This document shows, piece after piece, positions 3,403-32,515 of a DNA stretch of 40,902 bases. The stretch is from Acidovorax sp. GW101-3H11 (GTDB lineage: Bacteria; Pseudomonadota; Gammaproteobacteria; Burkholderiales; Burkholderiaceae_C): positions 410,237 to 451,138 of the forward strand of contig NZ_LUKZ01000001.1 in assembly GCF_001633105.1 (NCBI RefSeq), written 5' to 3'. The notes beneath the pieces were generated by a model, which did not search any database, was not told where the DNA came from, and saw only the letters and a program-made list of their open reading frames with translations. The position numbers and the translations under genes were made by a program. Position 1 is the stretch's first letter, and each line of letters begins with the position of its first letter.

Positions 3403-4545
3403 ATGAGCACACCCGATCCTCGCCCCGCCAAACGGCTCCGACGCACCAGCGCCCCGACCTCCGCCCCCGTTGCGGCCCCCGCAGCCCCCACCACCCCATC
3501 TGGCAAACCCCAGCGCCACTTCGCGATCATCGGCGCGGGCATGGCGGGCATTGCCTGTGCCCGCACCCTGGTGCAGGCCGGGCACCGCGTGACGGTGTTC
3601 GAGAAATCCGCCCAGGCCGGTGGCCGCACCGCCACCATCGACACCCCATTTGGCAACTTTGACGCCGGGGCCCAGTACTTCACCGTGCGCGACCCGCGTT
3701 TTGCCCGCGCCATCGACACCGTGCCCGGCATCTGCAAGCGCTGGAGCGCCAATTCCGTCCAGGTGCTGGACGCCGCAGGCCGCGTGGCCGCTGCGGGCCT
3801 GCCCCACCGCGAGGCGCACTGGGTGGCCAGCCCCGGCATGCAGGCCCTGGTGGGCGCCTGGGCCGAGCCGCTGCGTCAGGCGGGCCAGCTCCTCACCGAC
3901 ACGCGCGTAACCCGCATCGAGCCCGACCCCCTGAACACCCCCGGCTGGCAACTTCGCACCGAAGGGCCCGGCGGCAGCCAGCATGTGTATGCCGGTTTTG
4001 ACGCCGTGCTGCTGGCCCAGCCCGCCGTGCCCGCGCAGGCACTGCTGGCCAGCTCGGCCGTGGACACGCCACTGACCGACGCCCTCTCCAAGGTGGCCAT
4101 CGCCCCCTGCTGGACGCTGATGCTGGCCTACCCGCAGGCCGTGCGCCCGGGCCTGACCACGCTGGGCCCGCAGTGGAACGCGGCGCGCAGCACCCACCAC
4201 CGCATCGCCTGGCTGGCACGCGAATCGTCCAAGCCCGGCCGCAACGTGGTCGAACGCTGGACGGTGCAGGCCAGTCCCGCCTGGTCGGCAGAACATCTCG
4301 AAGACGACGCTGCCCGCGTGCAGGCCAAGCTGCTCAAGGCCTTTGCCGAAGTCACCGGCATCCGCGCCACCCCCGCCCATGCCGACACGCGCCGCTGGCG
4401 CTATGCACAAACCACCCACCCCCTGGGCAAGAGCCACCTGTGGGACACCGCCATGGGTCTGGGCGCCTGCGGCGACTGGTGCCTGGGGCACCGCGTGGAA
4501 GACGCCTTCGTGTCGGGCCTGGAGCTGGCACTCGCGGTGGCATGA
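3403..4545 (+). CDS. FAD/NAD(P)-dependent oxidoreductase, renalase-like
   Basis: A 380-residue flavoprotein. A Pro/Ala-rich N-terminal extension of about 38 residues precedes the dinucleotide-binding motif ([12 protein letters not shown], residues 42-53), with [11 protein letters not shown] (70-80) as the second FAD contact. The C-terminal FAD motif is [20 protein letters not shown]. The overall pattern is that of COG3380, proteins related to renalase and amine oxidases whose substrate in bacteria is mostly unknown. The stop codon overlaps the gluQ start (ATGA), so the two are translationally coupled. The extension has strongly biased composition; a later start is possible, though ATG 3403 is the only good early candidate. 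Confidence 0.85.
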
Positions 4546-5531
4546 CGGAGCGCGCGGCCCCGGAACCCAGCGGCGCCGCCCGGTACATCGGGCGCTTTGC
4601 CCCCTCCCCCACCGGCCCGCTGCATGCGGGCTCGCTGGTCGCGGCCCTGGCCAGTTGGCTGGACGCGCGCGCCCATGGCGGCCAGTGGCTGGTGCGCATC
4701 GAAGACGTGGACACCCCGCGCTGCGTGCCAGGCGCCGACCAGTTCATCCTGCAGCAGCTGGCCACCTGCGGCCTGGTGCCCGACGCGCCACCCGAGTGGC
4801 AGTCGGCCCGTTCGGCCCACTACCAGCGGGCGCTGGACCAGCTGGTGGCCCAGGGCCACGCCTACCCCTGCGCCTGCTCGCGCAAGGACGTCGAAGACGC
4901 TCAGGCGGCACTCGGCCATGCGCGCGAGCGCCATGCCGCGCTGCCCTACCCCGGCACCTGCCGCCACGGGCTGCGGGGCCGCACAGGGCGCTCGTGGCGC
5001 TTCAACGCCACAGATTTCAAGCAAAAACAGGCCCTACCGCCTGATGGATACGCCTCATCAGCTATTAATTCAATAGCAAACAACACCCTACACTGGCATG
5101 ACCGCCGCCTGGGCCTGCAGCAGCAGGACGTGGCCCGCAGCGTGGGTGACTTTGTGCTGCACCGGGCCGACGGGCTCTGGGCCTACCAGCTGGCCGTGGT
5201 GGTGGACGACGCGGCCCAGGGCATCACCGACGTGGTGCGCGGCGAGGACCTGGCAGACAACACCCCGCGCCAGATCCTGCTGCAGCAGGCCCTGGGTGTG
5301 CCCACGCCCCGCTACCTGCACACCCCGCTGGTGTGCGGCGCCAATGGCGAGAAGCTCTCCAAGCAGAACGGCGCCCGTGCGCTGGACCTGGCCGACCCGC
5401 TGCAGGCCCTCTCGCAAGCGGCCCTGGTACTGGGCCTGCCCGCACTGGAACATCCGCACAACAATCACCTGGGCGACGCGCAAACACAGTGGGTTGCGGC
5501 GTGGCGACGTCACTACAATGGCTCACCGTGA
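4542..5531 (+). CDS. gluQ: Glutamyl-Q tRNA(Asp) synthetase with an in-frame repeat insertion
   Basis: A 329-residue paralogue of the GluRS catalytic domain that attaches glutamate to queuosine in tRNA(Asp). The class I motifs are seen as [15 protein letters not shown] (residues 18-32, HIGH variant HAGS) and [10 protein letters not shown] (269-278, KMSKS variant). Zinc ligands C110, C112 and C140 are present. The start is the ATG overlapping the previous stop; upstream codons in this frame lie inside the previous gene. Compared with the E. coli protein as I recall it, about 22 residues are extra between WRFNATD and NTLHW (residues 159-180). Those codons (5016-5081) are a copy of a dispersed repeat. 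All catalytic motifs lie outside the insert. The stop overlaps the trmB start. Confidence 0.93.
5016..5081 (+). repeat. Dispersed Comamonadaceae-type repeat, copy 1, inside gluQ
   Basis: An AT-rich stretch inside a GC-rich gene. It holds two hairpins: CTGATG (5041-5046) with CATCAG (5056-5061), and GCTATT (5061-5066) with AATAGC (5072-5077). Its left part reads CAGGCCCTACCGC. The complement of 23309-23376 aligns along its length (CAGGCC, TACCGC, GCCT, GCTAT..ATAGCAA in order). It adds exactly 66 bases, or 22 codons, without a stop. Repeats of this kind are normally intergenic in Comamonadaceae genomes (recalled, not searched). Confidence 0.75.
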
Positions 5532-23308: not shown

Positions 23309-23376
23309 TGATTGCTATATTATTTATAGCAACAAAGGCATACCCAGAGCGCGGTAACGGCCTGAAAACCTTCAAA
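23309..23376. repeat. Dispersed Comamonadaceae-type repeat, copy 2 (intergenic)
   Basis: Lies between the convergent GntR and MocR genes. The core hairpin TTGCTATA (23312-23319) / TATAGCAA (23325-23332) is perfect with a 5-base loop. Its complement aligns with the gluQ copy along about 65 bases. Standing between convergent genes, the hairpin could also act as a two-way terminator. Confidence 0.7.
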
Positions 23377-32441: not shown

Positions 32442-32515
32442 GCAATAGCTATTATTTTTATAGCTACTTACGTAGATGGGGTGCGCGGAGAGGGCAAAAA
32501 ATCTCAAACTTTTGG
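32442..32515 (+). repeat. Dispersed Comamonadaceae-type repeat, copy 3 (intergenic)
   Basis: Lies between the convergent gabD and lipoprotein genes. TAGCTAT (32446-32452) pairs with ATAGCTA (32460-32466) across a T-rich loop, followed by ACGTAGATGGGG and GAGAGGGCAAAAAATC. It matches the general layout of the other two copies (AT-rich hairpin, then a GC-rich arm, then an A-run) but is more diverged. Confidence 0.6.

What the first reader, a model, noticed from the sequence alone, without database searches (positions are those of the whole stretch)
5016..5081. Dispersed repeat inserted in frame inside gluQ
A 66-bp AT-rich repeat with two hairpins lies inside the gluQ coding region. It adds exactly 22 codons with no stop between the zinc-binding part and the rest of the catalytic domain. 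The same repeat occurs between genes at 23309 and, more diverged, at 32442. A normally intergenic repeat that became protein sequence in a tRNA-modifying enzyme is uncommon; it could be neutral, or a new surface loop.
Basis: partly seen in the sequence, partly recalled or inferred. Interest (0 to 1): 0.72.

Follow-up and report, generated by a model that had tools for sequence, protein, structure and literature searches.

The report
Genome-wide repeat rewrites enzyme loop
In Acidovorax bacteria a DNA repeat of about 66 bases that is scattered over the chromosome, in a spelling that differs between lineages, also sits translated in frame inside the tRNA-modifying enzyme GluQ, where its spelling follows that of the genome, most likely because an unknown factor reads the repeat as DNA.

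Summary
In detail: window 5016-5081 lies in frame in gluQ and matches a dispersed repeat (180 core matches in the genome, some counted on both strands). It is no recent, strain-level event: the insert sits at the same place across Acidovorax and in other Comamonadaceae genera. Of 70 genomes compared, 45 have insert and repeats, 20 neither, 2 repeats without insert, 3 are unclear. Lineages spell part of the repeat differently; orthologous copies, and the translated copies in gluQ and pepN, carry their own genome's spelling, with misses among near-identical dialects. In gluQ the protein is nearly unconstrained while core synonymous sites stay at rare A/T letters. 124 of 165 elements point the same way relative to GC skew; orientation towards genes is unbiased. 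I read it as a DNA-level, replication-polar recognition site for an unidentified, co-evolving factor, the protein loop being a by-product. No factor was found. The bare motif pair was printed in 2017 without function; in-frame repeats are known from Rickettsia. New variant of a known kind.

The parts
4542..5531 (+). gluQ, glutamyl-Q tRNA(Asp) synthetase, 329 aa
5016..5081 (+). in-frame copy of the dispersed element (codons 159-180)
5036..5056 (+). zone whose spelling is lineage-specific (positions -24 to -4 before the core)
5060..5077 (+). core AGCTAT-N7-ATAGC; codon 174 is GCT in 34 of 35 and codon 179 GCA in 33 of 35 Acidovorax gluQ genes
23311..23370 (-). copy of the element outside gluQ (boundaries approximate)
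   Evidence: by eye against the G000 consensus
32443..32502 (-). copy of the element outside gluQ, more diverged, core readable on both strands at 32447-32464 (boundaries approximate)

Best explanation
The 66-bp stretch in gluQ is one in-frame copy of a dispersed repeat family whose spelling differs between lineages; it was probably inserted before Acidovorax diversified, and it is likely kept in step with the rest of the family because a still unknown trans-acting factor would read the element as DNA. Shown: copies at the same locus in different species agree in the dialect zone no better than unrelated copies do, while unrelated copies within a genome agree better; the translated copies in gluQ and pepN follow the dialect; synonymous sites of the gluQ core are held at letters the gene otherwise avoids; the listed elements are oriented relative to GC skew and not relative to genes. 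Inferred: that one factor recognises the element, that its specificity drifts with the dialect, that the signal is polar with respect to replication, and that the GluQ and PepN loops are tolerated by-products rather than functional protein.
For: Dialects: the 36 nt before the core have different consensuses in seven genomes, some close to one another. The own genome's profile is best for 6 of 7 gluQ inserts, 2 of 5040 permutations as high. By zone: dialect zone 3 of 5040 (own best 4 of 7), N7 loop 3197, downstream 1518, leader 70. Same-locus copies, 41 pairs at 24 loci picked by hand: dialect zone 0.55 between species, 0.53 between species at other loci, 0.62 within species at other loci; leader 0.61/0.44/0.45. 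So loci are inherited while the dialect changes. gluQ in five genomes, dialect zone: 0.68 to own repeats, 0.57 to other genomes' repeats. pepN: 24 of 28 genes carry the element in the antisense frame; the 4 without it are the repeat-poor G005, G031, G039, G042; own profile best in 4 of 6 genomes that have one. DNA-level constraint: between clades dN/dS 0.87 in the insert against 0.13 in the flanks, yet pS 0.318 against 0.453; 0 of 72 conserved four-fold flank columns have A/T as commonest third base, while codons 174 and 179 are held at T and A; ATA is 25 of 25 Ile at codon 178 against 5 of 215 in the flanks. Orientation: 124 of 165 elements in three genomes, Fisher 5e-10, each genome the same way; tandem gene contexts 38 against 35. 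The variable N7 sits between constant arms and is not homogenised; no two sampled copies of a genome exceed 88% identity, against recent copying.
Against: No factor is identified; the one candidate class tested, Y1/RAYT transposases, does not track the repeats. Base pairing of stem 1 is weak in the G000 and G040 dialects (3.5 and 4.0 of 9 pairs against 5.4-7.2) and no clear compensatory pairing was found, so what is recognised is unclear. G043 and G029 keep 140 and 109 core matches but have a GC-rich gluQ loop, so this copy is not essential; G077 and G065 (298 and 189 matches) seem from coordinates to lack the insert too. The third conserved four-fold column of the insert, codon 171, is not held at A/T (G in 21 of 35), and 5 of 72 flank columns are equally fixed, all at G or C. 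The leader zone also shows weak own-genome matching. Core arms of the sampled genomic copies are constant because I sampled by the exact core. G020's insert scored best with G046, and pepN of G046 and G001 with each other's profile; genomic copies of G046, G020 and G001 are classified to their own genome in only 9 of 23, 12 of 24 and 5 of 20 cases. The skew test uses capped lists and neighbouring sites are not independent, so its p is too small.
Confidence: 0.5

Rival explanations
1. Concerted evolution by gene conversion: copies keep overwriting one another by recombination between short repeats, in genes as elsewhere, without any function.
For: Within-genome homogeneity and tracking in gluQ and pepN are the classical signature.
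Against: Conversion should carry along the N7 loop, which lies between constant arms; it is not homogenised within genomes, and the gluQ loop stays like other gluQ loops (0.80 between species, 0.48 to own repeats). No near-identical pairs: maximum 0.77-0.88. It does not explain polarity with GC skew.
Confidence: 0.25
2. Fossils of a mobile palindromic repeat that inserted into single-stranded DNA of the lagging strand; copies are passively inherited and the gluQ insert is harmless freight.
For: Strand bias of about 75%, many copies near gene 3' ends, presence or absence by lineage.
Against: Passive freight should lose its A/T third positions and its dialect; GC3 of the insert in carriers stays 0.10-0.48 against 0.62-0.97 in flanking codons. 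PF01797 is not found in G066 and G245, which have 197 and 202 core matches, and is present in many genomes with none.
Confidence: 0.13
3. A DNA uptake signal for natural transformation: cells prefer DNA with their own dialect, which drives all copies to the same spelling.
For: Would explain dialects at inherited loci, copies inside genes and joint loss; dialects are known for the Neisseriaceae DUS (PMC3630211, search listing only).
Against: At most about 300 core matches per genome here, against about 1300 uptake signals in H. influenzae (PMC5217627, passage); strand polarity is not obviously expected. Transformation was not testable.
Confidence: 0.07
4. The insert has been recruited as a functional protein loop of GluQ (for instance for tRNA contact) and is kept for its amino acids.
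For: It is shared by dozens of species; some residues (K162, A171, A174, A179) are common.
Against: dN/dS 0.87 between clades, low-confidence loop, absence in the repeat-poor clade, GC-rich loops in G043 and G029, and constancy of synonymous letters.
Confidence: 0.05

Closest known systems
Rickettsia palindromic elements (RPE), protein-coding palindromes
   Same: Dispersed palindromic repeats between genes that also lie in frame inside conserved protein genes and are tolerated (PMC10969869 and PMC2229807, passages only; the original papers were not read, one was not held).
   Different: RPEs are about 105-150 bp with a long stem. Here about 66 bp, one sure short dyad plus a dialect zone, another class of bacteria, nucleotide constraint inside the gene, and tracking of the genome's spelling.
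Unnamed motif pairs GCTTAT(N)5AAGCG (Acidovorax ebreus) and ATAGCT(N)22CAAAAG (Polaromonas naphthalenivorans), PMC5217627 of 2017 (passages and section 13 read)
   Same: Probably the same family in other dialects: GCTTAT-N5-AAGCG occurs in 9 of 24 G020, 4 of 23 G046 and 1 of 20 G001 copies, 0 in the other four genomes; the second pair in 1 of 164 copies. The paper gives 114 and 125 copies, mostly near gene ends, 4% and 14% in genes.
   Different: In what I read they are two separate potential novel motifs, without a common family, dialects, named coding copies, strand polarity or constraint.
Betaproteobacterial repeat element BRE (PMC3110155, section 14 read)
   Same: Dispersed repeat of betaproteobacteria including Comamonadaceae, some copies inside coding sequences.
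   Different: In Bordetella 75-91 bp, 69% GC; 1-29 copies per genome, partly in tandem, reported as not co-oriented with replication. Ours is AT-rich, with mostly 50-300 core matches in repeat-bearing genomes, and polar.
REP/REPIN with RAYT transposases (recalled)
   Same: Short, palindromic, dispersed, long-lived within lineages.
   Different: No link with PF01797 proteins; many loci inherited across species; no near-identical sampled copies.
Uptake-sequence dialects (DUS) and polar chromosome signals (Chi, KOPS; recalled)
   Same: Lineage-specific spelling; strand bias relative to replication.
   Different: Longer element, fewer copies, no reader known.

Membership tests
Rickettsia palindromic elements | Dispersed repeat present both between genes and in frame within genes | tested here: met
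   21 of 156 elements inside predicted genes; gluQ and pepN followed up
Rickettsia palindromic elements | 105-150 bp with a long stem and about 12-bp terminal repeats | tested here: not met
   about 66 bp; core stem 5-6 bp; first hairpin not shared by the copies
Rickettsia palindromic elements | Sequence homology to an RPE family | not tested
   no RPE sequences were fetched
REP/RAYT | Accompanied by a Y1 (RAYT) transposase in genomes with the repeat | tested here: not met
   112 of 150 genomes match PF01797; G066 and G245 have about 200 core matches and no PF01797 match, many with no repeats have one
REP/RAYT | GTAG or CGTC tag at one end of the hairpin | not tested
   no tag scan was made
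BRE | GC-rich (about 69%), 75-91 bp | tested here: not met
   gluQ insert 44% GC, 66 bp; paper
Motif pair GCTTAT(N)5AAGCG of A. ebreus | Carries that spaced pair | tested here: inconclusive
   present in 9/24, 4/23 and 1/20 copies of G020, G046, G001; 0 of 22 in G000, which has another dialect
MITE | Terminal inverted repeats and target-site duplication | not tested
   insertion borders were not resolved
DNA uptake sequence | Lineage-specific dialect of a dispersed motif | tested here: met
DNA uptake sequence | Promotes transformation | not testable with these tools
   needs an uptake assay
GluQRS | Scores over the family cut-off and has the fold | tested here: met
Rfam families | Matches a described RNA family | tested here: not met
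   window 4900-5200: one chance hit at 8.1 bits, gathering 90

The most novel reading that the evidence does not exclude
Comamonadaceae chromosomes carry a lineage-wide network of polar DNA marks, with dialects, read by an undiscovered co-evolving protein; the mark is so strongly kept that it dictates the amino-acid sequence of loops in housekeeping enzymes such as GluQ and PepN, so that parts of these proteins evolve with the genome's mark and not with the protein.
Probability: 0.35. Interest if true: 0.85.

Novelty: new variant of a known kind. Interest (0 to 1): 0.64.

Why it matters
Repeats that become protein are usually told as one-off insertions. Here the insert keeps obeying the spelling of its family across a genus, in two enzymes, while the amino acids seem nearly irrelevant. 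That is a natural case of DNA-level constraint overriding protein-level evolution, and it points to an unknown chromosome-wide recognition system in a large family of bacteria.

Tried and rejected
Recent strain-specific insertion: rejected, the insert is shared. RNA family: nothing. RAYT as driver: not correlated (G245 is taken as without a match because it is missing from the table of matches, the last 18 genomes without a match being unlisted). Hairpin selection: no clear compensatory pairing; loop positions +7/+11 pair less often than shuffles (0.21 against 0.31), unexplained; the first hairpin of the gluQ copy is not shared by the other copies. Independent pairs for insert against repeat abundance: never opposite, but only 3 pairs on supported branches, not significant by itself. 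Number of origins: on the 150-row gluQ tree the insert needs 22 changes, 9 forced by well supported branches; within Acidovorax 3 changes. Whether other genera share one insertion event, lost it, exchanged it or gained it anew is open. All 21 carriers among the 80 named loci have the same phase and the Acidovorax carriers align codon for codon, which favours common descent.

Limits: genes were called with a home-made codon score, so 21 of 156 is approximate; L147/L170, L181 and L239 look like chance coding matches. Elements were sampled as the first listed places of each genome. gluQ was fetched for 70 of the 146 matching genomes, mostly the best matches, which favours insert carriers; G077, G065 and perhaps G055 have many repeats and from the coordinates seem to lack the insert, and were not fetched. 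Four of the 150 rows are duplicates of others (146 different). Rows dropped: element copies with low profile scores (19-30 kept per genome); palindromic sites of unclear strand, sites over 100 kb from a sampled piece and pieces with skew under 0.005; 6 unclear gluQ rows of 150; 3 unclear genomes of 70. The skew test used capped place lists of G000, G008 and G032. Neighbour-strand clustering was significant in G000 (46 of 64, 0 of 5000 shuffles) but not in G008 (p 0.19) or G032 (p 0.55).

Literature: searches listed no paper on this repeat; (exact core strings) found none; led to the 2017 paper and to nothing further. That coding copies, dialects and polarity are not in print rests on these searches only. 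Not used: the search for homologous proteins, search_dna_similar, metagenome scans.

Full report
What is there. gluQ occupies window 4542-5531 on the plus strand and is a GluQRS by family score and fold. Window 5016-5081 lies in it in frame and belongs to a dispersed repeat: 40 scored matches, self included, of 91 candidates in the own genome, and 87+93 matches to the core AGCTAT-N7-ATAGC against 1+0 for the reversed control. The element is about 60-66 bp: a leader, a GGCC-like block, a zone of about 20 nt, and the core. Two more copies lie in the window.

Distribution. gluQ from 70 genomes and 80 named loci was compared, 146 rows being different. By an element score 66 of 150 carry the insert, 78 do not, 6 are unclear. 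Carriers include Acidovorax, Polaromonas, Rhodoferax, Giesbergeria and Curvibacter records. In the Acidovorax clade (45 rows, support 99) 37 rows carry it, 7 do not, 1 is unclear. A CF316-like clade of 5 rows nested among carriers (supports 92 and 85, below the starred level) lacks it, and two rows have a GC-rich loop instead. Repeat counts run in parallel. Of 70 genomes, 45 have 30 or more core matches and the insert, 20 have 17 or fewer and no insert, 2 (G043, G029) have repeats and no insert, 3 with repeats are unclear (counts). The 70 were not drawn at random (see limits).

Dialects. In seven genomes the zone before the core has its own consensus, for example CCGCTTGAT.GACAAGCGC in G008 and AGCGCTAGT..AA.ATGCC in G040; G046, G020 and G001 are much alike. 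The gluQ insert scores best with its own genome's profile in 6 of 7 cases (2 of 5040 permutations as high). By zone the signal lies in the dialect zone (3 of 5040, own best 4 of 7), not in the N7 loop (3197) or downstream (1518), and weakly in the leader (70). Orthologous copies, by eye, show the dialect of their species at the same locus, for instance G000, G008, G020 and G046 at the L002 locus, where the G040 copy is degenerate. Over 41 pairs at 24 hand-picked loci, same-locus copies of different species agree in the dialect zone no better than unrelated ones (0.55 and 0.53), while unrelated copies of one genome agree at 0.62; in the leader the order is reversed (0.61, 0.44, 0.45). This is concerted evolution at inherited loci.

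A second coding case. pepN carries the element in the antisense frame in G000, G046 and G040. Of 30 genomes searched, 28 gave a match; 24 of these carry the element, and the 4 without are G005, G031, G039 and G042, the repeat-poor clade. The spelling again follows the genome: G000, G012 and G013 score best with the G000 profile; G004, G017, G040 and G044 with G040; G008 and G023 with G008. Of six genomes with a profile of their own, four score best with it (G020 tied with G046); G046 and G001 score best with each other's. G043 and G029 keep the pepN copy although their gluQ copy is gone. Further single cases have best-hit names of a sugar ABC ATPase, waaA and an acyl-CoA dehydrogenase (below the curated cut-offs) and moeA (above it).

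Constraint on DNA, not on protein. In the insert dN/dS is 0.44 over 29 close pairs and 0.87 over 55 pairs of 11 representatives, against 0.10 and 0.13 in the flanks. Synonymous divergence between representatives is lower in the insert (pS 0.318) than in the flanks (0.453). In 35 Acidovorax genes codon 174 is GCT in 34 and codon 179 GCA in 33, although none of 72 conserved four-fold flank columns prefers A or T (5 of the 72 are equally fixed, at G or C); codon 171, the third conserved four-fold column of the insert, varies (G in 21 of 35). Ile178 is ATA in 25 of 25, while the flanks use ATA in 5 of 215 Ile codons. Third-position GC of the insert in carriers is 0.10-0.48 against 0.62-0.97 in the flanking codons. 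The model puts residues 163-180 in a loop with pLDDT under 50 (overall pTM 0.83).

Position and polarity. Of 156 elements from five genomes, 132 lie between predicted genes (43 convergent, 16 divergent, 38 and 35 tandem), often within some 30 nt of a stop codon, 21 lie inside predicted genes, 3 are undecided. Against GC skew sampled in 20-kb pieces, 124 of 165 listed elements in three genomes have their forward strand on the C-rich strand (39 of 51, 33 of 44, 52 of 70). The lists were capped and neighbouring sites are not independent, so the Fisher value of 5e-10 is too strong, but the three genomes agree. Since orientation relative to genes is even, the element seems to act, if it acts, as DNA and not as part of a neighbour's transcript (inference).

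Mechanism. Homogenisation by gene conversion or by fresh copying should include the N7 loop, which sits between the conserved arms, and should leave some near-identical copies; neither is seen in the sample. Passive decay should have ameliorated the third positions; it has not. The simplest account left is position-specific selection through a recogniser whose preference differs between lineages. This recogniser is inferred. The one candidate class tested, Y1/RAYT transposases, does not fit. The gluQ copy folds into two hairpins, but only the core hairpin is common to the family; pairing of the other parts is not kept across dialects, so recognition of sequence is more likely than of a two-hairpin fold.

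Relation to what is known. In-frame palindromic repeats are known from Rickettsia (passages of PMC10969869 and PMC2229807). Two motif pairs that I take for this family were listed without function for Acidovorax ebreus (114 copies, 5 in genes) and Polaromonas naphthalenivorans (125 copies, 18 in genes) in PMC5217627 (section 13 read). For the first this rests on its occurrence in 14 of 164 element copies, all in three genomes; for the second on its spacing and 1 of 164 copies. BRE is a different, GC-rich element. New here, as far as my searches go, are the common identity, the dialects, the coding copies that follow them, the constraint on synonymous sites, and the polarity.

Noticed in passing
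L080 (G011), gluQ loop; L357: The same loop in L080 holds a second, unrelated repeat-like stretch (VRSELVEGPVHRERFERPELVQGPLRSSVLASTGSARTDG) next to the old insert, and L357 has a similar PEPVEGRTE stretch, so the loop tolerates repeated invasion.
   Followed up: no
L145 (G008) and L197 (G031), around 1500: An element-like core sits on the likely start codon of a gene whose product would begin MTLIAIILATLAAGIGSV; it is also there in a repeat-poor genome.
   Followed up: no
L176, L182, L014, L124, L017, around 1500: Other element copies inside predicted enzymes (best-hit names waaA, moeA, sugar ABC ATPase, acyl-CoA dehydrogenase, addA); the gluQ reading frame recurs in L014 and L176.
   Followed up: partly
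G061 (20 matches): Many alike Y1 transposase copies, some split into two frames: probably an IS200-like element that has multiplied.
   Followed up: no
element copies of seven genomes, core positions +7 and +11: These loop positions pair less often than shuffles predict (0.21 against 0.31), as if the 7-nt loop had to stay open.
   Followed up: partly
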